Position numbers and translations under genes: made by a program
Part shown: piece by piece, positions 4,305 through 34,039 of the stretch
Layout of the letters: each line of letters begins with the position of its first letter
How positions within the stretch are numbered: position 1 is the first letter of the stretch
Assembly (NCBI GenBank): GCA_023078555.1
Contig: CM041200.1
Span: forward strand, 9,013,528 to 9,077,527
DNA: 64,000 nucleotides
Direction: 5' to 3'
From: Ulva prolifera
Lineage: Eukaryota; Chlorophyta; Ulvophyceae; Ulvales; Ulvaceae
Notes under the pieces: model-generated
Databases searched by the model: none
The model's input: only the letters and a program-made list of their open reading frames with translations
What the model was told of the DNA's origin: nothing

Positions 4305-7300
4305 CTAGTCACCTGTAAGCTCACTGAAGCTGATGACCTCGAACTGCCCCTTGATGCGAGCAGCCCTCGCGATCAGCAGCTGCTTGACTGCCTCCAGTTC
4401 ACTCTCTGGGGTCACCTCGTTGCGGCATACACACTCATGGTATCCCCTGCTCGGCAAGTCGAGAAGGCCTTGACACCAGTCGACTGCAGCATATGGTTTT
4501 CACAACTCGCAGCCGGGTCGCACTCCTGGCCGTCACCAGATTTCAGGGTGGCTTTCCCCAGACTCTCCATTGCCGAGGTGAGCCTGGCAAACACTCGCAC
4601 GACCTCGGCCGTCATAGGCCACACCGCCAGGCGAAAGCACGTGAGGGTGGTCAGATCTGATCCTCGAGGAGCAAAGCACGCCTCCAGCTCCGCGGCGCCG
4701 CCGTGCTGGAACCCGTCGATGCGAACCGCCTGCAGCTGCGGCATCGCTGCAAAGCTGCGTGTCAGCACATGCAGCTGCATGTCGGCCGCAGCGGGCATGA
4801 TGAGGTGCAGCTTCGTCAGATGAGTGAACGACGCCAGCGGCTGCGAAACGACCGCGTCACACACCGACGACCGCAAAACGACCGAGTCGCGCACCGGTCC
4901 GCCCGCGGGTCGACCTCGCTCTGCTCGCCCGCGGGGCGACCTCGCTCTGCTCGCAGTGCCAATACAATTCCAGCTCCTGCAGCTGAGGTGGGGCACTCGT
5001 CAACTGCAGCAGCGGCAGCGCATTCTGCGCGCTGCCGAGCAACTCCTCACTGCTGTCCCCGAGCAGAAACAACAAGAGGGACGGCATGACAGCGAAACTG
5101 GACAGCCCGTCCAAAATCGCTCGTGCCAGTCCGGAGTCCAAGAACGCGGTGCGTGCGCTCACAGTGATCCCCCGGGGATGCGCGGGTGTGGCATCTGCTT
5201 GCCAGGGAAATTGTAGATTATCCGGCTCATCAGGTTCGTCAGGCGCCTCTGCTTGCCAGGGAAATTGTAGATTATCCGGCTCATCAGGTTCGTCAGGCGC
5301 CTCTGCTTGCCAGGGAAATTGTAGATTATCCGGCTCATCAGGTTCGTCAGGCGCCTCTGCTTGCCAGGGAAATTGTAGATTATCCGGCTCATCAGGTTCG
5401 TCAGGCGCCTCTGCTTGCCAGGGAAATTGTAGATTATCCGGCTCATCAGGTTCGTCAGGCGCCTCTGCTTGCCAGGGAAATTGTAGATTATCCGGCTCAT
5501 CAGGTTCGTCAGGCGCCTCTGCTTGCCAGGGAAATTGTAGATTATCCGGCTCATCAGGTTCGTCAGGCGCCTCTGCTTGCCAGGGAAATTGTAGATTATC
5601 CGGCTCATCAGGTTCGTCAGGCGCCTCTGCTTGCCAGGGAAATTGTAGATTATCCGGCTCATCAAGTTCGTCAGGCGCCTCTGCTTGCCAGGGAAATTGT
5701 AGATTATCCGGCTCATCAGGTTCGTCAGGCGCCTCTGCTTGCCAGGGAAATTGTAGATTATCCGGCTCATCAGGTTCGTCAGGCGCCTCTGATTGCCAGG
5801 GAAATTGTAGATTATCCGGCTCATCAGGTTCGTCAGGCGCCTCTGCTTGCCAGGCCAATTGTAGATTATCCGGCTCATCAGGTTCGTCAGGCGCCTCTGC
5901 TTGCCAGGGAAATTGTAGATTATCCGGCTCATCAGGTTCGTCAGGCGCCTCTGCTTGCCAGGAAATTTGTAGATTATCCGGCTCATCAAGTTCGTCAGGC
6001 GCCTCTGCTTGCCAGGGAAATTGTAGATTATCCGGCTCATCAGGTTCGTCAGGCGCCTCTTCTTGCCAGGGAAATTGTAGATTATCCGGCTCATCAGGTT
6101 CGTCAGGCGCCTCTGCTTGCCAGGGAAATTGTAGATTATCCGGCTCATCAGGTTCGTCAGGCGCCTCTGCTTGCCAGGCCAATTGTAGATTATCCGGCTC
6201 ATCAGGTTCGTCAGGCGCCTCTGCTTGCCAGGGAAATTGTAGATTATCCGGCTCGTCAGGTTCGTCAGGCGCCTCTGCTTGCCAGGGAAATTGTAGATTA
6301 TCCGGCTCATCAGGTTCGTCAGGCGCCTCTGCTTGCCAGGGAAATTGTAGATTATCCGGCTCATCAGGTTCGTCAGGCGCCTCTGCTTGCCAGGGAAATT
6401 GTAGATTATCCGGCTCATCAGGTTCGTCAGGCGCCTCTGCTTGCCAGGGAAATTGTAGATTATTCGGCTCATCAGGTTCGTCAGGCGCCTCTGCTTGCCA
6501 GGGAAATTGTAGATTATCCGGCTCATCAGGTTCGTCAGGCGCCTCTGCTTGCCAGGGAAATTGTAGATTATCCGGCTCATCAGGTTCGTCAGGCGCCTCT
6601 GCTTGCCAGGAAATTTGTAGATTATCCGGCTCATCAAGTTCGTCAGGCGCCTCTGCTTGCCAGGGAAATTGTAGATTATCCGGCTCATCAGGTTCGTCAG
6701 GCGCCTCTGCTTGCCAGGGAAATTGTAGATTATCCGGCTCATCAGGTTCGTCAGGCGCCTCTGCTTGCCAGGGAAATTGTAGATTATCCGGCTCATCAGG
6801 TTCGTCAGGCGCCTCTGCTTGCCAGGCCAATTGTAGATTATCCGGCTCATCAGGTTCGTCAGGCGCCTCTGCTTGCCAGGGAAATTGTAGATTATCCGGC
6901 TCGTCAGGTTCGTCAGGCGCCTCTGCTTGCCAGGGAAATTGTAGATTATCCGGCTCATCAGGTTCGTCAGGCGCCTCTGCTTGCCAGGGAAATTGTAGAT
7001 TATCCGGCTCATCAGGTTCGTCAGGCGCCTCTGCTTGCCAGGGAAATTGTAGATTATCCGGCTCATCAGGTTCGTCAGGCGCCTCTGCTTGCCAGGGAAA
7101 TTTTAGATTATTCGGCTCATCAGGTTCGTCAGGCGCCTCTGCTTGCCAGGGAAATTGTAGATTATCCGGCTCATCAGGTTCGTCAGGCGCCTCTGCTTGC
7201 CAGGGAAATTGTAGATTATCCGGCTCATCAGGTTCGTCAGGCGCCTCTGCTTGCCAGGGAAATTGTAGATTATCCGGCTCATCAGGTTCGTCAGGCGCCT

Positions 7301-7849
7301 TTGCTTGCCAGGGAAATTGTAGATTATCCGGCTCATCAGGTTCGTCAGGCGCCTCTGCTTGCCAGGAAAATTGTAGATTATCCGGCTCATCAGGTTCGTC
7401 AGGCGCCTCTGCTTGCCAGGGAAATTGTAGATTATCCGGCTCATCAGGTTCGTCAGGCGCCTCTGCTTGCTCTGGCCCGATGTTGATGGTCACATCTGTG
7501 AGCGCTGGATGGAACGCAGCGCTTGCAAAGATGCGCCGCAGCGATGCGGCGTCGACCTCACACGCATGCATATGGGGTACGTTGATGTACGCCAGCGTTT
7601 CCAGTGCCGGGCGGGGCGTGCTGCTCAGCAGTGCTGGGCACAGCGCATCACTGCGCGCCACCCTGGCTGTAGCAGACCTGTCATACCTCAGCACCAGCAG
7701 CGTGCGGACAGGGCCGCTGACGCCACTGCAGCACAGGGGCTGGCCGGTGCTGCGGCTGGGGATCGATAGAGTGAGGTTCGTGAAGGAGGGGGCGCTGGAG
7801 AGGGCCGCGATCACCGGGACGAGGGAGGGCCGTGCGATGACGTCACCTC
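4305..7849 (-). pseudogene. M1, 3' half: M-type LRR exon 3 split by transposon E0 and bearing a minisatellite
   Basis: The minus strand from 7849 starts at GGDVIARPSLVPVIAALS, which continues the family linker PGG.APTPPSLDPVIAALS seen intact in M3-M6. It then runs through LRR sequence matching M3 (ISGPFRTL, ALESLAY). At the point where M3 reads SFLFTWRAEA, about 42 copies of an 18-residue unit intervene, after which M3 homology resumes (GDSS.ELL.SAQNALPLLQ). Beyond about 4990 the frame changes: the next matching segment (VCDAVVSQPLASFTHLT) is in another frame, and the C-terminus (GLLDLPSRG, LEAVKQLLIARAARI, stop at 4305-4307) is in a third. The 5' half lies at 33449-34039. Exons 1-2 are missing altogether. 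It is a host pseudogene, probably dead since or before the insertion. Confidence 0.85.
5192..7469 (-). repeat. 54-bp coding minisatellite, about 42 tandem copies
   Basis: The unit is 54 bp, encoding an acidic 18-residue repeat AEAPDEPDEPDNLQFPWQ on the minus strand. Copies are nearly identical. Marker variants recur at fixed distance: the CAGGCCAATT variant begins at 5851, 6175 and 6823 (steps of 6 and 12 units) and the CAGGAAATTTG variant recurs 648 bp apart. A 12-unit block was therefore itself duplicated. Since 54 is a multiple of three and the unit has no stop in several frames, long open frames appear on both strands. Only the minus frame continues flanking LRR homology. Confidence 0.95.
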
Positions 7850-7868
7850 CCACTAGGAGAATGGTGAC
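7850..7868 (+). repeat. E0 terminal inverted repeat, left
   Basis: CCACTAGGAGAATGGTGAC, identical to the reverse complement of 33430-33448. Similarity stops right after 19 bp. Confidence 0.85.
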
Positions 7869-7972
7869 ATTCCGGGGCGGAACCGAAGGCGTTCCGCTGA
7901 CAGAGGAACGTTCCTACGAGGCTGTTGACCTTCCGCCCGCGTCCGTATGCTTCACAAGGAACGATCGTGGCG

Positions 7973-8058
7973 GAATGTCCTATGGCTTCCTTGGTGGCAG
8001 CGGAATGTCCTATGGCTTCCTTGGTGGCTGTGGAATGTCCTATGGCTTCCTCGGCAAC
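7973..8058 (+). repeat. Three 30-bp subterminal repeats of E0
   Basis: Three tandem units contain GGAATGTCCTATGGCTTCCT. They follow a run of GGAACG and TTCCG motifs (7868-7920). Subterminal repeats like these bind transposase accessory proteins in known CACTA elements; that role here is inference. Confidence 0.7.
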
Positions 8059-8119
8059 AGCGCTGACATGATTGTGTGCTCTTCCATAGCGCGAGACAGG
8101 CCAATCAGTCTCCGCAGAT

Positions 8120-9050
8120 GAAAAGCACTGGAAATCCATTGCGTACTGAGGCGAACGCAGCTGCGCACAAATGAAAACATTACAAACGAGCACATGGAAG
8201 AAGACAAACATCAAAGAAGCTGCGCCCATGTACGTCCAGCAGTCCGACTGCTCAGAGTTTGAGCTGGAACAAGTTTACAAAAGAGTTAACGGAGAAGACA
8301 TACATGCATGTACACCAAAGGATATTGAAAAGGATTGAGCACTCATGCCTGCATATCCGATGCCCACGGAAGACGAGGACGTGCCTGACAAGTTGGTGCT
8401 ACTCTCCTTTAGGTGGTCAAGCATGGACCGCGTTCAGAGGAGACAAATGGCGTGCTCCTGTCGCTGAGTGGTCAGTGTGGCACCGTCCATTCCGGTCTGA
8501 ATCGATGCAAGTGTGCCCAGTCAGCAACATCGTGGAATGGTCGGTGCCTCACCGACCATTACGGCCCAGTCAGCAACGTCGTGGAATGGTCGGTGCCTCA
8601 CCGACCATTACGGGGTCGAGTAATGCATGCGCTAGTCACCACTGCAGTGTCGATGGATAGCCCACGAGAATTGCATCTCGCCATCAACGATCTCTGGAGC
8701 GAGTATAGTACCAACGGAGCATCTTCCCACAGCAATGTAAGCCAATTCATATGAGCTATTATAAGCGTCTGGAGTCTCTCGTCGGCGTCGATATCGTCTC
8801 ATGATAATGCATTTCTAGTTTATTTATTATTTGTATCGACTCTCTTTGTATTTCTCTGGTACTGTCCTGACGTGCAGGGAGGCTAGCTGAAGGTTAACAG
8901 CATGTGGCACGAATAATGCTTGCGATTCATTTGTATAGCGTGGCATAACATGTCTGGCGTGGGTGGTGAGGGCGCTGTGGCCTGTCTTTAAGGCGATGGT
9001 CAGCCTGACCCTGGCGTGGCAGCACCCAGACATGAAGGGGGCAGAGGGCA
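8120..9050. other. E0 left arm, non-coding, with hairpin pair
   Basis: No gene is recognised. Two copies of a 33-bp unit at about 8530-8612 contain an imperfect palindrome, GGAATGGTCGGTGCC facing its complement. The unit resembles the hairpins of the right-arm array (31330-32200). A motif near 8274, TTTACAAAAGAGTTAACGG, recurs in variant form at about 30300 (reverse), 31259 and 32932, tying both arms to one element. Confidence 0.6.
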
Positions 9051-9059
9051 TAACAACAC

Positions 9060-9547
9060 AGAAACACCAAGTGCCACTGTGACTCAGCAACGATGGGCAG
9101 CATCACTGTCATCCCCGCAGCTCTGCGTGGGGGGGCGGAGGGCATAACAGCGCAGAAACACCAAGTGCCACTGTGCTGCGGCAGCGATGGGCAGCACCAC
9201 TGTCAACCCCGCTGCACTGCGTGGGGGGGCAGAGGGGGTAACAGCACAGAAGGACCAGGTGCCGCTGTGCTACGGCAACGATGGGCAGCACCACTGTCAA
9301 CCACGCTGCACTGCGTGGGGGGGGCAGAGGGGGTAACAGCACAGAAGGACCAGGTGCCGCTGTGCTACGGCAACGATGGGCAGCAACACTGTCAACCCCG
9401 CTACACTGCGTGGGAGGGCAGAAGGGGTAATTATAACAGCACAGAAACACCAGGCGCCACTGTGCTGCGGCAACGATGGGCAGCATCACTGTCATCCCCG
9501 CAGCACTGCGTGGGGGGGCGGAGGGTATAACAGCAAAGAAACACCAA
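9060..9547 (+). repeat. 95-bp tandem array, left part (about 5 copies)
   Basis: Each unit contains ACGATGGGCAGCA.CACTGTCA and a G-rich run GTGGGGGGGC. The array stops in mid-unit at ACACCAA, where E1 begins, and resumes in phase at 19353. It was one array before E1 inserted. Confidence 0.9.
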
Positions 9548-9868
9548 CGTCTACACAGGTGGTCGCCCATAAGGCATGGGCGACTCGTTATGCGGCCACT
9601 TATGGGCGACCGAACTGCCATGGATGAATCGAAAAAGGTGGTTAATTTTCGACCACCGCAGTATGTGTCAGAGTTTGCGGGCAAGATACATACATCAACA
9701 AGACTGCATACTTACTTTTATGTTGTACATAGCGCAGTCGCAAGCTGCATGTGTCGCTGTGGCTGTTCGGGCCATGTCCGCAGCAGCGACCATCACGTTC
9801 GCGCTAGATCTCTACTTCAAGTCCTCGTGGAACAGCGTGCAGATCCAAACGCAGCTGGTAGTAGCTAC

Positions 9869-10740
9869 TCAATTTATATCCCTGCGAAACCTCAAACTGC
9901 CTGAATCGCTGCACTGCGCTGGTATTACTGCCCCCTGGTCGCCACTGATTCTCCCGATGACAGGCAGTACACGAACGGGCGTTGCTGATTGATCCGGTGG
10001 CGCGATAGCGCAGTATGCAACTCCATAAAAAGCGTCATCCGCCCTGAGCCGATCGCCTCCGAATTTGTCGAGCGCGGTGCGCGCTTTGGCTACAATGCTG
10101 TTTTCGTCATGGGTTTTCTTCCGCTTGGGCCCAGCCGTCTTCACGATGCTCTTGAGTTGCTGTGCTCTGTTCGTGATTTTCGTGCTGAGTCCTTGCATGT
10201 TATTAGGCTCGGCAGGCTCCCCCTTCCGTGCCCACACCAGCCGGTCGCAACCAAACTGTTCTGCGTTCGGATCGCAGCAGAAGGCGCGCAACTTCCGGCT
10301 GACCCTTGGAGCTTGGTAGACGCAGCCGATCCAGCCACCGAATAAGGTTGATCTGAGACGTGCGTCTACTGCCAGGCAGCTTTGCATCTCGCACGCGTAG
10401 TTCTGTGAACGCAGCTCCGGTGGTCAGTGGGCGGTACACCAACATGGTTAGCCCGCTGCACAAAAGAAATATCCACATGCTGGGCCGCAGCGACGTCTTT
10501 CCTTGCATAACGTGGGTGAAGTGCTGCCGATATGCTCTGCTGTTGCTTCTTGCCGCAGCGGCCTTGTTGTCGTCTGGGGCATCCTCGCTGTCACTGAGGA
10601 AGAAGTTCAGATGCGTAGGCCTGTTCTGATTGGTGACCTACATCGGTTTCGCGTTGGGCGTATGAGACGGATGATCGCAAGGCATAGTGCACAACCTACT
10701 GCTCAACGTGCTGGAAGTCCAGCATAGTCTGATTTTTAAA
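9869..10740 (-). pseudogene. 3' remnant of an E2-type transposon gene
   Basis: The minus strand encodes NRPTHLNFFLSDSE, FLLCSGLTMLVYRP, FTELRVRDAK and, in another frame, GCDRLVWARKGE, DRLRADDAF.GVAYCAIA and ATPVRVLPVIG. These match in order the 316-codon frame at 21530-22480 of E2 (NRPSHLNFFLTDSE, FLLCTGLTMLVCRP, FTELRVGDSD, GCDRMVWSRIGE, DRLRSDDAYKGIAFCAIA). The copy is diverged, has at least one frameshift and lacks everything upstream. It lies the same way relative to the left end as in E2, showing that E1 and E2 descend from one family. Confidence 0.8.
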
Positions 10741-10829
10741 GCATGGATGATGCATGTCGGCTACTGCACCTGCCTTTGATGAGCACGAGCCATGTCCTGG
10801 TGGGTATAATAGGTGAGCTTCACTTTGGG

Positions 10830-12291
10830 GCTGTGCACGACTGGAAGCTTTCGTTGAAGACAATCCTGATGATTGCAGACCAAATGGTGCGCTGTCGATT
10901 GGGACATTTTGAGTTCCGGGCTGGCTGTGATGTGGTGAGAGCGATTGCGAGTACACCCAATGCATCATGAGAACGGCCGTGTGGATCTCAATCCTTTGTC
11001 TACAAACAGTATGCAAGCTCGGTCTGAAGACTGACAAGAGGCATTGCATACGTATGTCACGAGGTACATTTTTCTGTCATGCCGCCGTCGCCAATCACAG
11101 TTACAGGCATCAAATGATTGCAGCTATGCCGGATCGAGTACATCCATTCCAAGTCATTTATACACAGGTATGTGTGCGGTAGCACTTGAGGTTTTGCTTC
11201 TGGCGAATTGACAGGATCTATTCGGTCAAATGTGAAAAATGGTTTACTGATGCTCCACTAGAGCTGATTCCTTGTTGGCATTCAAGAGCAGAGGGCTCCT
11301 TGCAGAGATTTGAAGCCTGAGAACTTCCTCATGGCAACTGGGCAACGAACAAACCAAATAAATTGTATTGACTTTGGCCTGGCCAAGAGATATCGTGATA
11401 AGGAATGCCGTCATATTGCCTATCGTGAAAATTAGAGCTTGACAGGTACAGCCAGATATGCCAGTAGCAACACCCATCTTGGATGTGAGCAGAGTCGGCG
11501 AGACGATTTGGAATGCCTAGGCTTTGTTGTCATGTACTTATTGCGGGGTTCCTTGCCATGGCAGGTGCGTTTTTCGCCAGCCTGTTGGTGCCGGGCTCCA
11601 ATTCATCAGCACCAATCTAGGGGGACCTCCTTGGCGTGGAGAATGTCAGCGGTGTATCGTGGACTCACAATGCTTACAATACTTGCCATGCAGGGATTGC
11701 GGGCCCCAAACCGAAAGCAGAAGTACGAAAAGATCTGCTTTTCCAAGCTGCAGATCACTGTAGAGGACTTGTGTAAAGGCCATGATAAGGCATTCGTTCA
11801 CTACTTTGAACATGTGAGGCAGCTTTCATTTGAAGAGGCGCCAGACTACACGTGCGTGGCATGCTACATCACAGCTGCCATGTCCCTATCAGGTGTACAT
11901 TATTGACTGCATGCTAGATGTAGGTACCTGCGCCGGATTTTGAGGGACCTGTTCGTTGAAAAAGGGTGCGTACGCCAGGCTAGCATTGGCCTAAATTCTA
12001 CTCTGTTGCTCTAAAGTTCGTCAAAGACTTGGGTGTGAATTGCTTTGCTGCCACTTTTTTGCTGCCTTGCAACAGCAATGAGAACTTCTATGACTTTGGC
12101 CATATGTGTGCAGATTCTCATGGGACTACATTTTCGACTGGACTCTGAAGAGGGCTCAGCAGGTCGCTGGTCTCAGGTCCGTGTATGGTACAACATCTGA
12201 GTTGATACATTATAGCTCGAAGCTGCAAGAAGCCGATGGTTCGCAAGATGCACAGGAGGGTGCTAATAGTAGGCATTTAGAGAGTAGCTAA
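10830..12291 (+). pseudogene. 5'-truncated casein kinase 1 (CK1) gene captured in E1
   Basis: Spliced segments ending at 10886 and at 11124-11167, 11306-11564, 11694-11851, 11924-11965 and 12114-12291 encode [98 protein letters not shown] and FSWDYIFDWTLKR, all hallmark CK1 blocks (HRD catalytic loop, DFG, C-lobe). All five junctions keep frame with GT/AG ends. The N-lobe, with glycine loop and ATP-binding lysine, is absent; the upstream DNA is the transposon remnant. One in-frame TAG at 11433-11435 replaces the usual lysine before [10 protein letters not shown]. It cannot make an active kinase. Splicing signals are preserved, so capture was from genomic DNA, not by retrocopy. Confidence 0.9.
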
Positions 12292-13020
12292 AATGAAGTC
12301 GAATGCTTGTAGGTTTGTTAGCTGCCATCAAGATTGCCACCTGCACGGATCCCATCACATTTACAATGGCGAGTGCATGATCTACAGATCATGCCAGCAT
12401 ATGGGCTGCCAACAGTATGAGCATTACGTGTGCATGACTTGCTTGTGAATCGAGGACCCAGATTACTTGCATCTCCCAATATAAGTGGCAAATAATGAAA
12501 TGTTTTCGAAGAATTCGTTCATATGAGCGATCTTGATCCGGCCTGTCATCAGCAACGGTGGAATCCAGTCAGAAAGAAGCCGCGTTTGCTCGCAGCATCA
12601 TCAACAAGCTCCGCCGCTCTGTCATGACATCATAGTGGCCAATGTTCGCACAGAAGCAGCAATGAGCTCAGTACAGCAGCAGAACTCCGTGTGGGCTACA
12701 GGATGTAGACTAAAACATTGCACAACTACATCCTGCATTGTAACTTTATGATGTCCTGAATTGCAATTATTTCATGCTGTTGTAAAAGACACCTCAGACA
12801 GTCACAGTTCCAACTCTGTGCTAGACTTCAGCAGCAAATGCCCAAGCAGTGCCGGGTGGCTGAATCTGTGGATTTTACAGTCCACGGTGCATGCGGACAC
12901 CGCCCTGACAACAGGGTTGCCTGGTTGAACCAGATATTGCATCATATATGCCACTCGCCTATTCAGTCTTGACGACGTGTCCAAAGATGTTCAGCCCACC
13001 TGATCGCAGCAGCAGTAACG
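12292..13020. other. E1 interior, no gene recognised
   Basis: This follows the CK1 stop. No coding similarity, RNA gene or tandem structure was found; it may include the CK1 3' UTR captured with the gene. Confidence 0.4.
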
Positions 13021-13024
13021 CTGT

Positions 13025-13900
13025 TGTATTGATGATGTTGGTGCTAGAGATGGTGACCAAAAATTTCAAAAGATTGTACACACGAACCGCGACTGTACAG
13101 ACACAACCACTTCCAACATTGTGCCAGAAAACAGGCCTGTGGATGCGAGGCACGAGATCACAGGCAGCACAAGGCTTTCTGCGCCCCGGAGTCTCACCAA
13201 ACTACCACCAGGTACCTAATTCTTAAAGATTGGTGGGTGGTGGCCACAGGCCTGGCCATGCACGTGAGGACTGGCAGCATGTCATGCTCAGTTGGCCAGA
13301 AAGCAGGCCTGCGGATGCGAGGCACGAGATCACAGGCAGCACAAGGCTTCCTGCGCCCCGGAGTCTCACCGAACTACCACCAGGTACCTAATTCTTCAAG
13401 ATTGGTGGGTGGTGGCCACAGGCCTGGCCATGCACGTGAGGACTGGCAGCATGTCATGCTCAGTTGGCCAGAAAACAGGCCTGCGGATGCGTTTTCCACT
13501 GCAGACAGATGCGTTTTATGTGCACTAAGATTCAAAATTATTAATAAGCATGTCGCTAATGTATGGATGATGTTGGTGCTCATGATTGTGTCCAAAAATT
13601 TTGAAAGTTTGTGCACACGAAATGCGACTGTATAGACACAACCACCTCCAGCATTGTGCCAGAAAACAGGCCTGCGGATGCGAGGCACGAGATCACAGGC
13701 AGCACAAGGCTGTCTGCGCCCCGGAGTCTCACCAAACTACCACCAGGTACCTAATTCTTAAAGATTGGTGGGTGGTGGCCACAGGCCTGGCCATGCACGT
13801 GAGGACTGGCAGCATGTCATGCTCAGTTGGCCAGAAAACAGGCCTGCGGATGCGAGGCACGAGATCACAGGCAGCACAAGGCCGTTTGAACACACCAGAA
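13025..13900 (+). repeat. Tandem repeat, unit about 172 bp, in E1
   Basis: Units contain CAGGCCTGCGGATGCGAGGC and then ACTACCACCAGGTACCTAAT. They start near 13122, 13294, 13466, 13660 and 13835. A second module (GATGATGTTGGTGCT, at about 13030 and 13566) precedes two of them, giving a compound pattern. Open frames across it are by-products of the repeat. Confidence 0.75.
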
Positions 13901-14140
13901 ACACAAATAGGTGACCCAATAAGTATCGTAGACAATCTGAATGCTGATGTCCCACAGGTCTGGCCATGCAGATGAGGGATGGCTCTGTTTCTTGCGGATT
14001 GTGGGTGAAAATAGGCATGCGAAAGCCAGGCGCGAGATCACAGACACCGAAACCTCGCGTGACCCACCCGGACAGCAACAATTGTGTTCGCGAGCGCGAT
14101 GTGTCAGACCATCAGGAATGTCGTACGACGTGGGCTAGTC

Positions 14141-14420
14141 ATGTCTCCCGCTAACAAGGGGTCTCCCGGGTACCCAGCCGACACTAAATCATAGACACGA
14201 TGGGCCGGCCCGGCAGGCTCGAGCAGTTGCTCTGGGCAGGTCTGGCTCGTCCACTACAGACTATTCAGATGCTGCCTCCAGAACTGTTCAAGCATCGTTG
14301 TATGCCCATTTGATTGCTATTGATGCCTGGTATGGTGCTGGCAGCGATATCGATGCAACCATGCAAGTGACCGTTCACGTAGGCGTCAGGACTGTCGCTG
14401 CGTAAAGTCGCTGCCGTGCA
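14141..14420 (+). repeat. Left arm of a 3.2 kb foldback structure
   Basis: About 280 bp beginning CATGTCTCCCGCTAACA, matched in inverted orientation by 17056-17333 at roughly 90 percent by eye. Arms this long around about 2.6 kb suggest a foldback or Mutator-like non-autonomous element. The flanks show no clear 8-9 bp duplication, so the family is not settled. Confidence 0.75.
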
Positions 14421-15284
14421 TGAATTGATGCAACTCATGTAGCACACAGATTTAATGGCTAGGTTGTGTATCAGTGTGGTGCACAGCATACAAATCGTAT
14501 TTTGGGAGTACGGCTTCCTGTGAGCGCAGTTGACAGTACCTTCACATCACGGGCTGCATTGCAGCTTTCGACAGGGTTGGTACAGAATTTCACCCACATC
14601 TCATATCTATGGCGCGTTGCTTGCGCACTGAGGCTTTACACTGTACACGCATCGTATGCGTGATGCCATCGCAGCGGGTCATTCAACACGGACGTGCGTG
14701 AGGCTGCAGCCACGTTGTATCTGAGCACGCATGTCAAGGCGTGCATCAGGAAACGTGATGTGATGTTGCAATGGTGCCAAATTTACCACTACCACGGCTG
14801 CCTTACAGGCGATGTGTGCCTCGCAGCCCAATTCCTGCAGTAGCATCGCCGCTCATAGTCCCTTTCACTTTCTATTGCAGTGTATTTCATCGTCGTTTGT
14901 ATGCGAAACTATTGCACTGGTACAGGAAGAAAACGACAACACACCGTTTTCAAATGCCCTGCATCAAGGGCCGCAGAGGTATTACTGAAATAGCTAGCTG
15001 TCCATTTCATTGCACAAACACGAAGGTTCACACAGTATCCACACAAACAAGATTTGGAATCTGATCATCACTGAATCATCACTGCGGAATGAGAACATGC
15101 CTCAGCAACATGACTGCAATCATCAGCGGTGCATGTGCGATGCGCCTGTTATGTCTGAGTAGGATTCTACTACATAGGCAAAGGCACAGGAAAACGACCT
15201 CTGCAGGCTCATGGAGTTGTGCTCTGTGGCTGTGCAAATGCCACGGAGCTCCGACTCGGTGTGCCAGCCGAGACAAAGCCTAGG

Positions 15285-16258: not shown

Positions 16259-16351
16259 ATGCAGACATGCTTGGGCTTCAAAACATGAAACAAGAATACC
16301 TTCACAGGCGGTACATGATTCTGGGCTCGCTCAGGTTGCAACACTTGGCAC

Positions 16352-16403
16352 CAGTGCTTACTGGTCATGACCAGTAAGCACTGGTCATGACCAGTGCTTA
16401 CTG
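16352..16403. repeat. Two overlapping 32-bp perfect palindromes
   Basis: 16352-16383 and 16372-16403 are each self-complementary, sharing the centre-type GGTCATGACC. They lie just before another perfect palindrome inside the foldback element. Confidence 0.85.
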
Positions 16404-16407
16404 CTAT

Positions 16408-16451
16408 AAGCTGCTACCCTCTCATTTGATCAAATGAGAGGGTAGCAGCTT
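16408..16451. repeat. 44-bp perfect palindrome without spacer
   Basis: The left half is AAGCTGCTACCCTCTCATTT and the right half is its exact complement around GATC. It could form a cruciform or mark a fold-back junction of replication or repair origin. Confidence 0.9.
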
Positions 16452-19100: not shown

Positions 19101-19352
19101 TCCACCCATTGTACCAATCGAACCATGTGTGATGTCGAAACATTTCGACATCGTCTTTTCGAACACCGCGCATAAAAACGCTCATAAAACTTGCAACAAT
19201 TACCCAAAAGTCGCTCGTAATTTATGGGCCGTCGGACAGCCTCATAATTATGAGGAAAATGGGGGCGCATTTAAGCGCCTTTTGTATTGGCGGGCATATG
19301 GGCGGATAATGCATAATTATGACACCCGTATGGGCGACCACCTGTGTAGACG

Positions 19353-24500: not shown

Positions 24501-26676
24501 GCTCTGTAGTGCTGGGCTGGAGGCTTTTATGCCTGCACAACACGAGTGGTCAAGACTCAGACGTGGCACGCTTTATACGGTCCAGTTTGATCTGTCGCCG
24601 TATCCTTCGTTACTCGTTTTGTGGAACCCTTTGCTATGCCACAATTACAGATTTGTAGGCTTCCTGTGCCGGGACTTGCCTTGTCTTTTCATCTCTGCCT
24701 TTGACCCTGACTCTCGAATTGCTTCTGCTTCTCTGGGACTTCGGTGTTTGCGGTCTTCTGGGGAAAGCTCATGTGCTGCGAGGTCAAATTTGCATGTAGA
24801 GGTGTGGCATAGCAAACAGGCGGCATCTGTGCCTCCATTGACGCTGTCAAGCCTGAACCCGAATCGCTGCATCAGCCCCATTGTAGCTGCAGCCTCTACG
24901 GTGTCCATAATCAATGTACCCACCATTACGTCGCAATGGGCTGTCAGGTAGGGACCTCTTGAATCAAACGCCGGCTCGACACTGCTGTGACGTAACAATT
25001 CTTCTCTATCCTTGTGAAATTTCACCCATACCTGCATCAGATCAGGCACGCATGGTTGTAACATGCTGAGTGCATATGCCGTCCGGATACCATTCCCCTT
25101 CTTGGATCTGGACCATTCATCATCTCGGACCAACATTGGCGGGGGTAGCGCACTCCGCATTCTGGCTGCGTAGCCGTCCCTATATCTCTGAGCATCTCCT
25201 TCCACATCGCTGCGGTGGTGGCACTTATAGCGGCGTCGATGTCTGCCACGCGTACATGCTCTTGGCCTTTGGGCCTCTGTGCAAGTACCCATTCCTTCAC
25301 ATTTGGGACCATGCACAGTAGTTGTATCGCATTATGACGCAGACTGGCATCTACATTCATCGGCGCCACAAATATAGGGTACAGCTCACTGCAGCAACAC
25401 GCATTGGCTTATCTAGATCTGTCTCTATATGCTGCAGTCCCAGGCTACTGTTGACTCTGCCGGATAGGGTGTGGTCGATCATGCAGCACAGGCTTGTCAA
25501 ACCACTGTCCTTTTAAGAGAGGTCACCTTTTGGCAATCGGGCTGATCAGGGTCTTGTCAAAGAATATTGCCACTGCGAAAATGGGCCTTGTGGACTCTGC
25601 TAACCCTAGTCCGCCCTGCATCCGGGCATGAATCCGAGCCTGCACGTCGCCCCACCATCAGCTGTTTGTGGTGCATGACTGTAACTCATACAAAGCCCTG
25701 CCTTCTACGAGGGGAGCGGAACCTGTTTCGCTTGGCGTACAGCCGAGCCGTGCATGAAACTCACGACTCTGCCTGCCGTGTCAGCGTCGAGGGAGCCCTC
25801 AGAGGTACTGACTGGATCCATGCGTATGTTGCAGTTCTCGATGACAGGATTCTGAAGCGAGCAGCTCAACACTTCAGCGATTGGCCTGATGAACAATGGG
25901 ACCGGGGCCAGTTGCCTGAGTAATGCGTGATCTGATACAATAGGTACTTCCCTGGCTGTCATCTTGCATCGGTACTTGTCTGCTTTGTCATCCAGGTATT
26001 TATTCAGTGCTTCAACTGTATGGATCGTGGGCCGTCTCTCGTGCTCAGGTCGGGATGTCTGCCTTCTCAGCACTTCCAACAGGCGCACCCCCATGAAGTA
26101 ATTCCTTTGCTGTACTGCTGTGAGGTCTTTGAGCATCCATGCAATGATATCATTCGCTACCAACATATTCTCGACGTATGCAGGTATAGATGCATCTGTT
26201 GGTTGCTCTCCATCACTGTCGGGTTCGGAGTTGTCCTCACTCGTAGCGTCTGGAAGAGTAAAGGTTGGCCAACCTTCGTCTGATGTCTCCGTATTGCACT
26301 CAGGCTTGCACTCCGTTTCACATTCTGGTTCACCGAGATCCTGTCCGTAGAGACCCTTGTTGGTGCTTGGCTGGGCTGGGGCGAGGTGGGGCTTGGTGGT
26401 GTGATTGTATTCTGCTGGATCATGGGCTGTTTCTGCTTGAGGACCGTTGGGCAGTTTCAAAGGCTCTGCAGATCTGGTAGCCAGTCTGTTGGTAATGCTT
26501 GCAGCGGCCTGGTTGTTTGTCAATTTTGTAAGTACCCGTTCATTGTATGACCGGTCTGCTGTGGTCCGCTTCGTGATGAAACCCCTGCAGTGCCTTCTGT
26601 GTGCTGCTACCGCGCCTCTACATGGCGCCCCCACTATAGCCATCCCGCACGCGTCACACACAATAGCTGGCTGCAT
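21530..26676 (-). CDS. tnp2-like transposase candidate of E2, multi-exon
   Basis: The ATG at 26676 opens a frame with a C-x2-C...H-x3-H-C finger (CDACGMAI...AAHRRHC), then an acidic linker. Coding blocks follow downstream: VAIFFDKTLISPIAK (about 25580-25650), PIFVAPMNVDASLRHNAIQLL (about 25350), AFDSRGPYLTAHCD and GGTDAACLLC (24700-24960), GIKASSPALQSIFWDSQ and WGVDHLHHWTLGVMKRF (24370-24532), then SQIRKLVYNDYF, VRFERYQEPLMG and NRPSHLNFFLTDSE to the 316-codon 3' frame. The order FFDKT, then C.LC, then GIK.SP.L....D.(L/M)H...LGV.KR is typical of tnp2 (CACTA/EnSpm and Plavaka-like) transposases; the D in VDHLHH could be a catalytic acidic residue. Frame changes between blocks are mostly intron-like, but the one near 22480 could be a true frameshift. 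Splice sites are not resolved. Confidence 0.55.
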
Positions 26677-26747
26677 TCATCCAAATTTGAAACAGCAGCG
26701 GGGCGGATCGCTAGCGCACGGACTGGTAGATTACTCGTGCGGCCTGT

Positions 26748-27484
26748 TCACATCTGCAGTCCGGTCGGTAACTCTTCCAACTGAGTACTCGCCGGAGGGG
26801 GTGTCACAAGGCGTCTATAATCAACGTCGTGAATATGTACAGATGCTGTGCTTCTTGGTGCCCGTCGTAAACCGTCCTGCACGTTGAATCCGACGGGGAC
26901 GGTTGGTCTCCCCGTTTGATTCGAGCAGGCTTGGGCCTCGACCACGGACCACTTCTGTACAGCCTCCTTCATGTCCATCCGAGCGAGGGCGACCCCTTCT
27001 ATGTTCTCAGCTAATGCGTAGTCCACTAGCGTCAGTTGATTGGATCTCGAGAGAAGCCACGCCCCTGGATACATATCAAAGGGAAACCCGTTTTGACGGA
27101 TGCGCACGTCGGGGCTCACCGTACGAATTCCTTTAGACTGCACATCCCGACAAAACTCTAGAAAGATCAGGAATGTAGGGTCATGAGGCACTGACTCAAC
27201 CAGACGGATGAGGTCTGACACGGATCTGACATCACCCATAGCGCAGGCGGCAAAAAGTACAAGTGACGTCTGACGGCCTTGTGGTGAACACCGCCCCACA
27301 GAAGAAGACGTAAACGATCGTGATTTCCGTAGAAAACGCCAAAACCAACATGATATGCCGAGACGGACTTTAGCAGAGATGTGATGGGTACCCAGGAGAA
27401 CGCACACGCGACACCGGTGGCCATCGCCGTGAGTGCCCCGTAGTCACAAAACGAGTCAACGAAGGCTCCGCCTAACGCAGCCAT
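26748..27484 (-). CDS. Unrecognised open frames upstream of the E2 transposase
   Basis: Two overlapping minus frames look protein-like: MAALGGAFVDSFCDYGAL (27484 down to about 27250) and DVRSVSDLIRLVESVPHD.TFLIFLEFCRDV to GFPFDMYPGAWLL (about 27245 down to 26900). They may be consecutive exons of one small gene, or 5' exons of the transposase starting upstream of 26676. No domain is recognised. They fall inside E2, so they probably move with it; CACTA-type elements often carry a second gene. Confidence 0.35.
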
Positions 27485-28189
27485 GACGAAATCAGATCAG
27501 TACATGTCAACTTCCAAACCGCATCCTCATGGATAATCTTATTATGCCAATTCGTCGGTTGTGTGCGCTCCGGAAGATAAGAATTGCGCCCCTTTTGATC
27601 GTCAACGCTGCTGCACCACAGTGCAGAGGTACCATCGCTGCAGAGGATATATGTCTTCACAAGTACGTTTCTACTCGACAGGTGGATACAGTGTGGGTGA
27701 TTGTCATACCGTCTCTTCTCTTAGCACCGTTCATTATGACGAGAAAGGGGTACCTGGTACGCCATAGAGCGCGCCCCCCACCTTGCATATAGCGTCCATC
27801 ACATGGCATTTAAATGGCTGTGACTATGTCATGATAATCCATCAGTGCCAGATCGCGTTGACAGGCGTCGTCGGTAGTATCGTGGCGTAACAACGCAGGC
27901 AACTGTTGGCTGTCAAACGGCACGAACCTGCGGACGAAGCAGACTAATGTGAGGCCAATGCAGGTGATTGACTTTTGACAGTTACGAGAAACCGCCACTG
28001 ACGATCAAGAGGCAGAGACGACACATCTCAGCGCAAATGGATGGGAGAGACACAGAACATAATTTTGACCGATGATCAGTAAGGTAGTATGTTTCCTACT
28101 CGTATGCATTCAGGCTTCGGTCCAGTCACATCGGCTGTGCAGATCGTTTGTTTGTTCAGGCATCGACGGTTGACCAGGTCGCCCAGCTA

Positions 28190-28228
28190 CGTCTACACAG
28201 GTCGTCGCTCATATGCTACTCATAATTA
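28190..28228 (+). repeat. Extra CGTCTACAC transposon end inside E2
   Basis: These 39 bp match the inverted right end of E2 (29239-29277) with two mismatches, better than the true left end does. The pair 28190/29277 would enclose a 1.09 kb unit, but its flanks (TA and CA) do not match, whereas 20505/29277 is flanked by CA on both sides. It may be a nested copy that lost one end or a duplicated terminus. Confidence 0.65.
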
Positions 28229-28539
28229 GTAGTACTTGTGCAGGTCAGTTCATACATGGTTCGGCGTTTGGCATCGAGAGACCTGAGTATGACCTGTTTG
28301 TCCCATCAGCTACGACAATACGACAGCGTGCGTCGAGTCACTGACACATCAGGTACGTGTACCATTGCCAAGTGCAACTGCTACAACGCTGTATGGGTTG
28401 ACAAGGAACAATGCATACAGGTTACTTTCTTCAAGGGGGCTGCAGCCTGCCCGAACAACTTCAGACGAGCTCGAAACAGCAATTGCACGGACTCGGAGCC
28501 ATGGCAGGTAGGAGCCTCACAGCCTTGCACGCTTGCGGC

Positions 28540-28811
28540 ACAGCCCAGGCGGATGCCGCTTGGGCTGTGCCGATGACGCATATGCATGCACCACCAGTGA
28601 CAGCCCAGGCGGATGCCGCTTGGGCTGTGCCGATGACGCATATGCATGCACCACCAGTGACAGCCCAGGCGGATGCCGCTTGGGCTGTGCCGATGACGCA
28701 TATGCATGCACCACCAGTGACAGCCCAGGCGGATGCCGCTTGGGCTGTGCCGATGACGCATATGCATGCACCACCAGTGACAGCCCAGGCGGATGCCGCT
28801 TGGGCTGTGCA
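28540..28811 (+). repeat. 60-bp tandem repeat, about 4.5 identical copies
   Basis: Each unit holds CAGCCCAGGCGGATGCCGCT followed by TGGGCTG, a short hairpin, and then CATATGCATGCA. Copies are identical by eye, so amplification is recent. Open frames exist on both strands because 60 is a multiple of three; none is convincing. Confidence 0.9.
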
Positions 28812-29279
28812 ACATGAGGGGCTGACCACCTCCAATGCAGCTCGTACAGACGCAGCTCGCGTGCGCCGGGTGCAGTGAGCAGGGCCACGCAGATGGGCGG
28901 TGTGCCATGCGCCTGCAACAAGGCCACGAGTGGCTTTGCTGTTGGGCATGGCATACCGCCTGCTCTGGGTGGACTGCTGGCCACCAAGCTGCAGCCTGCA
29001 GTCACGTACATGACAGTGCATACCCCCCACAACTAGGGGTACTGCCCGGGCAAGCACACTTACACAAATGCACATGGTGCTATTCAAACTCGCACTGCTG
29101 GTACCGAAAATACAAAAGTTGTACATCTCGTGAAAAACAAACTCGCTCATATCGAAAACCTTCCGCTCATGTATATGCGGAAAATGGGGGGGTAAATAAG
29201 AGCCTGCGTAAGCGACCGTGCATGAGCGTGGACGCTTGTAATTATGAGTGGCATATGAGCGACGACCCGTGTAGACGCA

Positions 29280-31325
29280 CCCGCACAAACACGCATGCAC
29301 ACCCACATTGGTACAACGTTCAACGGTACGTACTGCAGCAGCGGTGCATATACTACATTTTTGCCCGACTTGTCTTGCATCGGAACCACTAAAACGATTT
29401 TATTACTTTACCACGTACATATGTATGGCTCATACTTCCGTTGTGTCTCTGCTTTCGGTGTTGCCAATCATCCGGGGTTCATGCTAGCGCCAGGAGGCAC
29501 CATGAGATCTGTGTAATGGTGGCCTGGGGCTGTTTGGGTTGCGTGCATGGCTGGGTCCACTAACGCCACACTCACCGCGATGCTGTTTTTGCATGCATGC
29601 GTGCATGCGATGTGTGGCGGTAACGCTCGCCATTCCAGGCGCGATCTCCATATGTGAGCTGTCAAAACCTAAACATTGCATCAGTGAGCATAAATGTATT
29701 ATCAATTCGTTGTGCTGTCTCAATGCGTTGGAGTGCAAGCCATGACATCCGTACTGCGTGTGCGGGCGCACCGACATGATCATTGCGGCGTATCTGGTTG
29801 AACAGAGCGCCTGATCAGTCATTCATGAAGTCTTCTACAATCTCTGTCTGTGGGTATTATTGTATAATGTGGTGTGAATCGTAGGCGGGTCTTTCACTCC
29901 CGGGCTGGCGTCTAATTGTTAGCAAGCAGCAGCCGCAGGCGTCATCGCCGCTGCTCAACTTCCGACATGCTCAATTGAAGTATGCTGCAAGGTGTGACGT
30001 TTGTATATGTCTGACGGCGCTGTCGTGGACATCACTTCCTTGCGAAGGCGCCGAAGACGCAGCTGATGTGCCGATATCGATGGTCGAGGCGCACACATTG
30101 TTCTGTTCGAGATGGCACCTGCCACCAGTTTAGAACTACTTCGTATATCATATATGCTGTAGCTGTATGCTGTAGCTTTGGATATGTTGTAGCTTCGGAT
30201 GTGCGATGGCGCCCGATCGCATGAACCACGTTCACCTTGCTTGCAGAGCAGCTGCTTGCAGTTGATTCGGATGAGATTCGGTTTCGGTGTTTGTTTTCTC
30301 CCGTTCACTCTTTTGTAACTTTTTGCTTGCAGAGCAGCTGCTTGAGGTGATTGCCGTCCGACTCCGTGTCTCAAACAAACTGACATTCTTAGAGTACGAG
30401 TAAGCAGTAATGTTACCTGGAGCCTATCTACGCTTGCTTCTCTGCTGCTCGATCGAGATCATTGTGGTGCGCCTGGCATTTGCGTGCACCATCGGTTGTT
30501 GACCAGGTGTGTTTTCGCAGGTCACGGGTATCAGCATCTTCCGGTATACCTACGTAGCCTACCTGAGGAACACACACTCACGTGGAAGTTATTTCGAGCC
30601 GGCCATGGGATCGTGACATCAAGCAAAATTGCATGGCATGGAGGTGGTGCGATCCTATACCAAGTGCTTCCATTGTGGAGAGCAAACATATGGAGTATGT
30701 TCTAGATTGACTATGGTTGGACAGTACCGAACACTCTCGCGAGACTTGCATAAATCTCGGCGAACAAAGTTTACATGCACAACTGCCATCGACAGTTACT
30801 TCGTGGCAACAAGCAGGCGCCCAAACATCGCATTTGTGTGTGCACACGTGCGTCCAAGTTTGACCTCGTTAGTACCCGCAGGGCGTCTATAAGCATGCAT
30901 GGGATCAAAACTGTAAGACAAGGCAGCCAAAGGATTAAGAGGACCGGAATATGTCGACAGCAGTGAGGGCTTAGAGAATTATCCGGCGCGTTCCTTGTTT
31001 GAGTGCGTTGTGTTGGGGTTGCAATCCTTCGAGTGTATACATGTATCATTTAGCTGCGTACGTGGTGCCTCCACGTGGTGTCCTGTCTCGCCTTGATAGC
31101 TGATGCACATTGCATTTCCCAAGAGGCACGCGGAATACATCTGCACCATCGTAAGTTCGTTTAGTGTTCTTCTGCATGCCTGCTAGAGCGGGCAGTCCCG
31201 CACCGTTCGTTTTCAAGAGTCCGCGAGAGCGGATGGTGGAGCACCGTCCATTCGTAGTTACAAAAGAGTGAACGAGAGAAAAACAACACTGAAATTCTTA
31301 GTCGCCACGCCGCGCATGGTTCGTC
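29280..31325. other. E0 right arm, no gene recognised
   Basis: This is DNA between E2 and the hairpin array. It includes a direct repeat TGCTTGCAGAGCAGCTGCTT near 30237 and 30328 and the dispersed GTTACAAAAGAGTGAACG motif. No coding similarity was seen. Confidence 0.5.
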
Positions 31326-31329
31326 ACAT

Positions 31330-32200
31330 GCATGACTACTGGAATGGTTGGTGCCCCACCAACCATTCCGGGGAGCCTGGATCATGACATGCATGACTGC
31401 CCGAATGGTTGGTGGCCCACCAACCATTCTTGTGCGTCGCGCCGTGCATGGATGCTTACATACATGACTGCCCGAATGGTTGGTGGCCCACCAACCATTC
31501 CGGGATGCCTGGATCATGACGTATGTCATGCATATGCATGACTGCCCGAATGGTTGGTGGCCCACCAACCATTCTTGTGCGCCGCGCCGTGCATGAATGC
31601 TTACATGCATGACTTCCCGAATGGTTGGTGGCCCACCAACCATTCTGGGGAGCCTGCATCGTGACATGCATGACTGCCCGAATGGTTGGTGGCCCACCAA
31701 CCATTCCGGGGAGCCTAGATCATGACATATGTCATGCATATGCATGACTGCCCGAATGGTTGGTGGCCCACCAACCATTCTTGTGCGCCGCGCCGTGCAT
31801 GGATGCTTACATGCATGACTTCCCGAATGGTTGGTGGCCCACCAACCATTCTGGGGAGCCTGCATCGTGACATGCATGACTGCCCGAATGGTTGGTGGCC
31901 CACCAACCATTCCGGGAAGCCGGATCATGACATATGTCATGCATATGCATGACTGCCCGAATGGTTGGTGGCCCACCAACCATTCCGGGGAGCCTGGATC
32001 ATGACATATGTCATGCATATGCATGACTGCCCGAATGGTTGGTGGCCCACCAACCATTCTTGTGCGCCGCCGTGCATGGATGCTTACATGCATGACTTCC
32101 CGAATGGTTGGTGGCCCACCAACCATTCCGGGGAGCCTGGATCATGACATGCATGACTGCCCGAATGGTTGGTGGCCCACCAACCATTCTCGTGCGCCGC
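31330..32200. repeat. Array of about 13 perfect hairpins (E0 right arm)
   Basis: GAATGGTTGGTGG and its exact complement, separated by one C, recur every 60-75 bp (for example near 31402, 31475, 31549, 31619, 31679). Links between them vary in length and share CATGCATGACT or GTGCGCCGCGCCGTGCATG. Spacing is irregular and the repeats are self-complementary. The related pair at 8530-8612 in the left arm suggests the hairpins belong to E0. Confidence 0.9.
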
Positions 32201-32237
32201 GCCCCACATTCCCTGACAGACGCATCTGATGTAGACG

Positions 32238-33059: not shown

Positions 33060-33429
33060 ACATCCGGGCAGAGATTAACCTCTCACGAACCATCCTGTTC
33101 TTCCAGGCTTCCGGGAGGCTTCCGCAAGGCTCTGCCGGAACGTTATCGGATCCGTAACCATTCCGAAATTTTAAGCATTCTTCCTCAAACAGTCCTCTGG
33201 AAGCATTGCGGATCCTTCGCACGTTCCGGCATCACTCCGGAAACGTTCCGGCGGAACCCCCACGTGGAGTGCCCGTTGAAACACCCCGTCCGGAACGCTC
33301 GCGGAACTTCCGTCCACAATCCGGGCTGCCTTCCGGGCGCTCCGCCAACGGTCCTTTCGCCGTTCCCGGGGCTCCGCCAGGCCTCCGCCACTCTTCCTCA
33401 AACCATCCTCGCACCTTCCTCACCACTAC
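33060..33429. repeat. E0 right subterminal region rich in TTCCG/CGGAA
   Basis: More than a dozen TTCCG or CGGAA motifs in both orientations occur within 370 bp directly inside the terminal repeat, mirroring the GGAACG/TTCCG run inside the left end. Confidence 0.65.
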
Positions 33430-33448
33430 GTCACCATTCTCCTAGTGG
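33430..33448 (-). repeat. E0 terminal inverted repeat, right
   Basis: Reverse complement of CCACTAGGAGAATGGTGAC at 7850-7868. Confidence 0.85.
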
Positions 33449-34039
33449 ATCCAGGGGACATGCATGCGGCGATCCTGCGCCGCTTCGCGGCCGGGCAGGC
33501 GCCGGGGCCTTCCGCGGTGGCGCAGTCTCCGCGCTGCCGTCGCCCGGGGCGACCTCGTGTTTGGTGTTCCTCGGGAGCCAGGCTGCGCAGGTGGAATGCA
33601 TGCAGGCGGGGCAATGCGGAGATGGCCGCTGCCAGGGCCTGGACGGCCTCCGCCGCCGCCTCTGCAGCTCCCTCTGTTAACGAGCGTGGCAGGCAGGGGG
33701 CGGAGAGGGTGAGGGAGGTGATTGCGGTGAGCTGCGGCAGCGCGCGGAATACGGTCGCGGCGGGGGGGGAGGGGCTGCAGGGCGCCCAGGACAGGCGGTC
33801 CATGTCCAGCTCCTCCAGGGCCGAGTGGTGGCGCAACATGGAGCACAGGAGGCAGGCTGACGCGGCATTAGGGATGTCACAATCGATTGAAAGAGAGGTC
33901 AAGCCAGGCAGTGTGGTGTCGGTGAAGAGGTCCGGAGCCGTAGGAAGTTGAGCACGTCGTCAGGGGGGTGGCCTTGCGGGAGCGTGAACGATCGGCGGTT
34001 GTCGCCGCGAGATGGGGACACCCACAGGTCACAGTACGC
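33449..34039 (-). pseudogene. M1, 5' half: start of M-type LRR exon 3
   Basis: Exon 3 starts after the acceptor CTGCAG with AYCDLWVS, as in M3, and runs through VLNFLRL, LTSLSIDCDIP, MLRHHSALEELDM and LPQLTAITSLTLSAPCLP to AKRRRIAACMSPG, where E0 interrupts it. One frameshift near 33910 separates the first 45 codons from the rest. Exons 1 and 2, expected at higher coordinates, are missing, and 390 bp further on the next gene (M2) already ends. The 3' half lies at 4305-7849. Confidence 0.85.

What the first reader, a model, noticed from the sequence alone, without database searches (positions are those of the whole stretch)
4305..34039. One LRR gene split by a 25.6 kb nested transposon
The 5' half (33449-34039) ends at CMSPG and the 3' half (4305-7849) begins GGDVIARPSL. 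Paralogues read straight through PGG here. Both halves lie on the minus strand in the right order, and 19-bp perfect inverted repeats lie exactly at both breakpoints. Unrelated breaks would not be expected to meet at the same codon. A CACTA-like element this large, made of nested parts, is unusual.
Basis: partly seen in the sequence, partly recalled or inferred. Interest (0 to 1): 0.88.

Follow-up and report, generated by a model that had tools for sequence, protein, structure and literature searches.

The report
LRR gene split by nested transposons
In an unnamed eukaryote, perhaps a green alga, a decayed leucine-rich-repeat gene was cut in two by a CACTA-like jumping element that holds further jumping elements; it is a clear example of a known kind of event, not a new kind.

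Summary
A leucine-rich-repeat (LRR) gene on the minus strand is split at one codon. Trees of each half place it with the same paralogue, 40623-42413 (support 98/95 and 100/100). The 19-bp perfect inverted repeats sit at both breakpoints (7850-7868, 33430-33448).

"One 25.6-kb CACTA-like element" needs correcting. An outer CACTA-like shell of about 7.0 kb has CACTAGG ends, CGGAA/TTCCG repeats in both terminal 350 bp, and a palindrome seen only in the shell. It holds a 94-bp satellite and two elements of another terminal family (CGTCTACACAGG, 2-bp duplications). Element A (9548-19352) split the satellite and carries a casein-kinase-I fragment and a long-inverted-repeat element. Element B (20505-29277) carries the only long transposase-like gene. 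No transposase was recognised in the shell.

The outer target duplication is TCC with two bases unexplained, or TC with one. The host gene also has frame changes and a 42-copy minisatellite, so it is a pseudogene.

Passages I saw describe giant nested EnSpm/KDZ elements in a brown alga, a 20.5-kb CACTA element in a soybean gene, and CACTA elements with captured satellites and gene fragments. This is a new member of a known kind. Whether the 25.6 kb moved as one unit stays open.

The parts
33450..34021 (-). 5' half of the LRR pseudogene (frame change near 33923)
   Evidence: tblastn with g42 residues 1-183; tree with g42 98/95
4299..7850 (-). 3' half of the same LRR pseudogene, swollen by a 54-bp x 42 minisatellite at 5194-7470
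   Evidence: tblastn with g42 residues 189-596; tandem repeats; tree with g42 100/100
7850..7868 (+). left terminal inverted repeat of the outer element O (19 bp, perfect)
33430..33448 (-). right terminal inverted repeat of O
7848..7850 (+). left copy of candidate 3-bp target duplication TCC (pairs with 33450-33452; 33448-33449 then remain as two unexplained bases; alternative: 2-bp TC with one extra base)
33450..33452 (+). right copy of candidate target duplication TCC
7869..8218 (.). left subterminal region of O: 6 CGGAA/TTCCG (2 of them in a 30-bp tandem repeat), 16 GGAA/TTCC
33080..33429 (.). right subterminal region of O: 12 CGGAA/TTCCG, 18 GGAA/TTCC
8466..8613 (.). left-shell palindromes of the type GAATGGTCGGTG..CACCGACCATT
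31294..32203 (.). right-shell array of palindromes GAATGGTTGGTGGCCCACCAACCATTC (13 copies)
9037..9547 (.). 94-bp satellite, left part, ending in AA next to element A
19353..20381 (.). 94-bp satellite, right part, resuming in phase with AA directly after element A
9548..19352 (.). nested element A (9805 bp): 24-bp perfect inverted repeats CGTCTACACAGGTGGTCGCCCATA, 2-bp duplication AA
9813..10850 (-). decayed C-terminal transposase-like piece in A, about 40% identical to that of B
10845..12147 (+). casein kinase I gene fragment; gaps between its blocks read as introns; one in-frame stop
14137..17338 (.). third-level element inside A: about 287-bp inverted repeats (about 91% alike), 7 of 9 flanking bases shared; holds a 183-bp tandem array
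20505..29277 (.). nested element B (8773 bp): same terminal family, first 20 bp with 1 mismatch, 2-bp duplication CA
21533..26676 (-). multi-exon transposase-like gene of B; motifs D (25564), D (24908), C(2)C (24818), H(4)H (23694), E (23421) assigned by eye
28190..28228 (.). extra copy of the right-end type of the A/B family, inverted relative to 29277; could instead mark a separate 1.09-kb element 28190-29277

Best explanation
A non-autonomous CACTA/EnSpm-like DNA transposon (the outer element, O) inserted by cut-and-paste into the reading frame of an LRR gene, at a proline-glycine-glycine run, and duplicated 3 bp (TCC) or 2 bp (TC) of target. A transposase supplied from elsewhere would have acted on the CACTAGG ends and the subterminal repeats. 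Two elements of another family (A and B), which work like Plavaka/EnSpm elements, lie inside O, one of them inserted into O's own 94-bp satellite; most likely they arrived after O, raising it from about 7.0 kb to 25.6 kb. A carries a piece of a casein kinase I gene, apparently taken as genomic DNA. The LRR gene is dead and has other lesions. Shown here: the split gene, the terminal repeats, A inside the satellite, the subterminal enrichment, the kinase fragment. Inferred: the order of insertions, mobilisation in trans, the superfamily resemblance.
For: Exact junction and one closest paralogue for both halves by tree. 19-bp perfect repeats at both breakpoints only. Ends CAC..GTG with a candidate 3-bp duplication. 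CGGAA/TTCCG 6 and 12 in the two terminal 350-bp stretches against a mean of 0.50 and a maximum of 4 in 755 overlapping flanking windows; 0 of 1000 shuffles reached either count. AATGGTNGGTG 2+2 times in the left shell, 13+13 in the right shell, 0 in A, B, both satellite parts, both flanks and the stretch 20382-20504. A interrupts the satellite in phase with AA on both sides. GC 0.531 for O against 0.589 and 0.603 for the flanks. 17 of 18 shell ORFs of 90 aa or more, stop to stop (list), gave no transposase in Pfam.
Against: The target duplication is not clean: one or two bases at the right end are unexplained. Pfam gave no transposase for 8 separate ORFs of the A/B transposase region or for two hand-joined versions, so B's gene is called transposase-like from motifs read by eye. 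The CGGAA motif was chosen from a k-mer listing in the same call, so its test is post hoc, and 2 of the 6 left copies lie in a 30-bp tandem repeat. The palindromes lie 0.6-2.2 kb from the ends, further in than usual for subterminal repeats (recalled). By bit score the 5' half is marginally closer to g48 than to g42. No second copy of O and no empty allele could be examined. The order of insertions is not shown.
Confidence: 0.62

Rival explanations
1. The whole 25.6-kb composite (O already holding A and B) jumped as one giant unit into the LRR gene, so the nested cargo is itself mobile. This shares everything with the best explanation except the order.
For: In Ectocarpus nested insertions in giant elements are generally fixed among copies, from which the authors infer movement after nesting (PMC12477816, passages). 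O's 19-bp ends are still perfect.
Against: Nothing in the window dates A and B against O's insertion. Growth in place needs no transposition of a 25.6-kb unit.
Confidence: 0.26
2. The two halves are remnants of two different LRR paralogues in this cluster, and the meeting of the breaks is accidental or an assembly join.
For: The cluster holds many related genes, and by bit score the 5' half is marginally closer to g48 than to g42 (213 versus 208).
Against: Trees of each half put it with g42. The junction is exact to the codon and the 19-bp repeats abut it on both sides. No reads were available to test the assembly.
Confidence: 0.04
3. The transposase-like gene in B is O's own, and the CGTCTACACAGG repeats are internal repeats of O, so O is one large autonomous element.
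For: The exons lie inside O, and by eye their motifs follow the order reported for the CACTA-related clade (PMC12730594, passages).
Against: A, bounded by the same repeats, splits the satellite with a 2-bp duplication and holds a divergent piece (about 40%) of the same gene in the same orientation near its left end (0.27 kb from it; 1.03 kb in B). That ties the gene to the CGTCTACACAGG family.
Confidence: 0.08

Closest known systems
Giant EnSpm and KDZ transposons of the brown alga Ectocarpus (PMC12477816; passages seen)
   Same: Generally over 10 kb, nested insertions of unrelated elements, additional genes in many families, transposase gene frequently predicted to be pseudogenised.
   Different: Different organism; many copies there, one copy seen here; largest EnSpm there 15.2 kb (KDZ 30.3 kb); no transposase recognised in the outer shell here.
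Tgmt*, 20.5-kb CACTA element in a soybean F3'H gene (PMC2613891; abstract and passages seen)
   Same: Large CACTA element within a host gene, 3-bp duplication, asymmetric subterminal repeats.
   Different: Inserted in an intron; carries its own transposase gene; nesting not mentioned in the passages seen.
CACTA elements of Chenopodium with captured gene fragments and satellite arrays (PMC8978399; abstract and passages seen)
   Same: Captured gene pieces and satellite arrays inside CACTA elements.
   Different: Here the kinase piece lies in a nested element, not in the outer shell.
CMCT clade: EnSpm/CACTA, Plavaka and relatives (PMC12730594; passages seen)
   Same: B's gene has, by eye, D..D..C(2)C..H(4)H..E; 2-bp duplications, as in PlavakaA.
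   Different: Termini CGTCT..AGACG rather than TGT..ACA or CATCA..TGATG; no Pfam match.
EnSpm-Plavaka elements of the green alga Auxenochlorella (PMC12636532; one passage seen)
   Same: Same broad group reported in a green alga.

Membership tests
CACTA/EnSpm (outer element O) | Termini 5'-CAC(TA)..(TA)GTG-3' | tested here: met
   CACTAGGAGAATGGTGAC at both ends, 18 of 18 identical from the CAC on
CACTA/EnSpm (outer element O) | 3-bp target site duplication | tested here: inconclusive
   TCC on both sides, but two bases (GA) remain at the right end; or TC with one base left
CACTA/EnSpm (outer element O) | Closely spaced direct and inverted subterminal repeats | tested here: met
   CGGAA/TTCCG enriched at both ends, in both orientations; motif chosen post hoc
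CACTA/EnSpm (outer element O) | Tnp2-type transposase (not required of non-autonomous members) | tested here: not met
   17 of 18 shell ORFs of 90 aa or more gave no transposase in Pfam. So O is described as CACTA-like and non-autonomous, not as a proven member
CMCT clade, Plavaka-like (elements A and B) | DDE triad with C(2)C and H(3-4)H between second D and E | tested here: inconclusive
   Motifs in the right order, assigned by eye on a hand-drawn exon model; no profile match
CMCT clade, Plavaka-like (elements A and B) | 2-5 bp target duplication | tested here: met
   A: AA within the satellite; B: CA
CMCT clade, Plavaka-like (elements A and B) | 5'-CA..TG-3' termini in most cases | tested here: not met
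   Termini are 5'-CGT..ACG-3'; so A and B are said to work like this clade, not filed as members
Mutator-like (element 14137-17338) | Long inverted repeats and 9-bp duplication (recalled) | tested here: inconclusive
   About 287-bp repeats; flanks ACGTGGGCT and GCGTGGGCA, 7 of 9 alike
LRR protein (host gene) | Repeated beta-alpha units of an LRR horseshoe | tested here: met
   Model of g42 (mean pLDDT 72.1, pTM 0.67, 6 sequences) alternates strands and helices; best Foldseek hit is ribonuclease inhibitor 2bex, E 1.9e-07, but TM-scores are only about 0.2-0.4; Pfam LRR hits of the paralogues are below cut-off or absent

The most novel reading that the evidence does not exclude
Elements A and B belong to a so-far unnamed CACTA-related lineage with 5'-CGTCT..AGACG-3' termini and 2-bp duplications, and the 25.6-kb outer element still moves as one unit with these elements and their kinase piece aboard.
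Probability: 0.12. Interest if true: 0.45.

Novelty: new member of a known kind. Interest (0 to 1): 0.22.

Why it matters
It is a readable case of layered transposition into a gene of an LRR cluster: gene, CACTA-like shell, two elements of a second family, and one long-inverted-repeat element, with a host kinase piece riding in a nested element. If other copies share the nesting, it would bear on whether giant nested elements still move.

Tried and rejected
Searches that found nothing: the 19-bp end in viral contigs, 0 exact matches; relatives of two transposase-region ORFs in viral contigs and of one of them in genome contigs; relatives of one LRR protein (g42) in viral contigs and genome contigs; Rfam at gathering scores and tRNA scan of the window, 0 hits each. 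These collections are viral or prokaryotic, so the misses say little about a eukaryote.

Pfam on 8 separate ORFs of the A/B transposase region (two repeated, one) and on two hand-joined versions, and PDB by sequence, gave no credible transposase match. Weak hits were taken as chance: DUF1028 0.2, Thr_dehydrat_C 0.27, ferredoxin 0.66 and a DUF1989 protein 1.7. Pfam hits in tandem arrays were taken as repeat artefacts: on 15392-16285 seven families, best InvH 4.5e-06; on 31164-32141 DUF4087 0.00026 and Astro_capsid_N 0.0081, the latter also 0.27 on 32014-32430. Three other shell ORFs had single hits between 0.022 and 0.12. One of the 18 shell ORFs, 8930-9202, was not scanned.

The kinase ORF 11439-11906 alone gave no Pfam hit (11436-11903 likewise); the stretch upstream did (Pkinase 6.2e-07, below the gathering score), and the joined pieces matched casein kinase I (5.7e-56).

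In one search the first piece of the 3' half was translated in a wrong frame; the tree was repeated in the right frame and that one is cited. In one search one exon of the joined transposase was off frame; the queries use the right frame. A separate element 28190-29277 was left open: B's left end and 29277 share a 2-bp duplication, while 28190 and 29277 share a longer repeat but flanks TA and CA.

Literature searches: (9 searches). One search (four terms together) returned 0 papers. Six papers were opened for passages, none read whole; Comparative genomics of Chlamydomonas (PMC8226300) has no EnSpm, Plavaka or KDZ in its held main text.

Full report
What was checked. No whole genome is held for this window, so everything rests on the window, libraries and papers.

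The split gene is real. To the right, on the minus strand, lie four long uninterrupted paralogues (g42, g48, g54, g61), one that changes frame near its C-terminus (g36) and one partial (g63). With g42 (40623-42413) as query, residues 1-183 fall on 34021-33447 and residues 189-596 on 7829-4299, and no match of the six queries lies wholly between the repeats. Alignments of g36, g48, g54 and g61 run 58-100 bases past the left breakpoint, which I take as run-over. At the break the 5' half reads CCT GGA and the 3' half GGA GGT, where the five paralogues shown read PGG or PIG. Trees of each half place it with g42: 98/95 for the 5' half (6 rows), 100/100 for the 3' half (7 rows), and 100/99 for the first piece of the 3' half alone (6 rows). 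By raw bit score the 5' half is marginally closer to g48 (213) than to g42 (208). The protein is LRR-like: its model alternates strands and helices and the best Foldseek hit is ribonuclease inhibitor, with low TM-scores. Pfam sees LRR only below its cut-offs, or not at all.

The gene is a pseudogene for other reasons too. The frame changes near 33923, between 4917 and 4864 (at a 26-bp tandem duplication) and near 4493. The 3' half has swollen by 42 copies of a 54-bp unit (5194-7470, 98% matches).

The ends. CCACTAGGAGAATGGTGAC occurs twice, at the breakpoints, and 0 of 100 shuffles gave two matches. On the plus strand the flanks are ACCTCC|CACTAGG and CCTAGTG|GA|TCC|AGGGG. TCC is thus a candidate 3-bp duplication with two bases left over; TC is the 2-bp alternative with one left over. 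The terminal 350 bp on each side are rich in CGGAA/TTCCG (6 and 12) against a mean of 0.50 and a maximum of 4 in 755 overlapping flanking windows; 0 of 1000 shuffles reached either count. The motif was picked from a k-mer listing in the same call, so the test is post hoc, and 2 of the 6 left copies lie in a 30-bp tandem repeat. AATGGTNGGTG occurs in the left shell (2+2 on the two strands) and the right shell (13+13) and in no other zone counted, which ties the two shells together.

The layers. CGTCTACACAGGTSGTCGC occurs five times at up to 3 mismatches, against 0.03 expected. Two of them bound element A (9548-19352): 24 bp perfect, with AA on both sides. A 94-bp satellite ends directly before A and resumes in phase directly after it, so A is an insertion into that satellite. 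Two others bound element B (20505-29277), with CA on both sides; a fifth, at 28190, is an extra right-end copy, and a separate small element 28190-29277 is not excluded. Without A and B the outer element would be 7015 bp.

Contents. B holds a multi-exon minus-strand gene (21533-26676). On an exon model drawn by hand, FFDKT, MDTVE, CLLC, HLVVSH and YETVH follow in the order (D, D, C(2)C, H(3-4)H, E) that PMC12730594 gives for the CMCT clade (passages). This is by eye; Pfam and PDB sequence searches gave no credible match. A holds a decayed piece of a related C-terminus at about 40% identity, and a casein kinase I fragment at 10845-12147 with gaps that read as introns and one in-frame stop. Inside A lies a further element (14137-17338) with about 287-bp inverted repeats and 7 of 9 flanking bases shared, perhaps Mutator-like (recalled criterion). 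No transposase was recognised in 17 of 18 shell ORFs of 90 aa or more.

Mechanism. Most likely a non-autonomous CACTA-like element inserted into the reading frame through a transposase supplied in trans, and A and B later inserted into it. The order is inferred. The alternative, that the whole 25.6 kb moved as one unit, cannot be excluded from one copy; in Ectocarpus nested insertions in giant elements are generally fixed among copies, from which the authors infer continued transposition (PMC12477816, passages).

Known or new. A large CACTA element in a gene (PMC2613891), captured satellites and gene fragments in CACTA elements (PMC8978399), giant nested EnSpm/KDZ elements in a brown alga (PMC12477816) and EnSpm-Plavaka elements in a green alga (PMC12636532) are in print. 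I file this as a new member of a known kind. The one feature with no match in the passages I saw is the 5'-CGTCT..AGACG-3' terminus of A and B; my searches were few and do not show that it is undescribed.

Noticed in passing
5194-7470: A 54-bp unit repeated 42 times, in frame, inside the 3' half of the LRR pseudogene; the unit resembles a single-copy stretch of paralogue g42 near residues 309-325.
   Followed up: partly
34435-36217: The neighbouring LRR gene g36 also changes frame: its C-terminal part continues in another frame at about 34701-34435.
   Followed up: no
1592-3358 and 50615-52393: LRR-like ORFs also lie on the plus strand; the two tested have the stronger, still sub-cutoff, Pfam LRR hits.
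   Followed up: no
28540-28810: A 60-bp minisatellite, 4.5 copies with 100% matches, inside element B near its right end.
   Followed up: no
30256-30319 and 32930-32993: A 64-nt inverted repeat (84%) in the right shell of the outer element, without a clear duplication; possibly another old nested element.
   Followed up: partly
9037-9546 and 19355-20381: The satellite stretches on the two sides of A are up to 97% alike over 300 nt, while the transposase-like pieces in A and B are only about 40% identical in protein.
   Followed up: no
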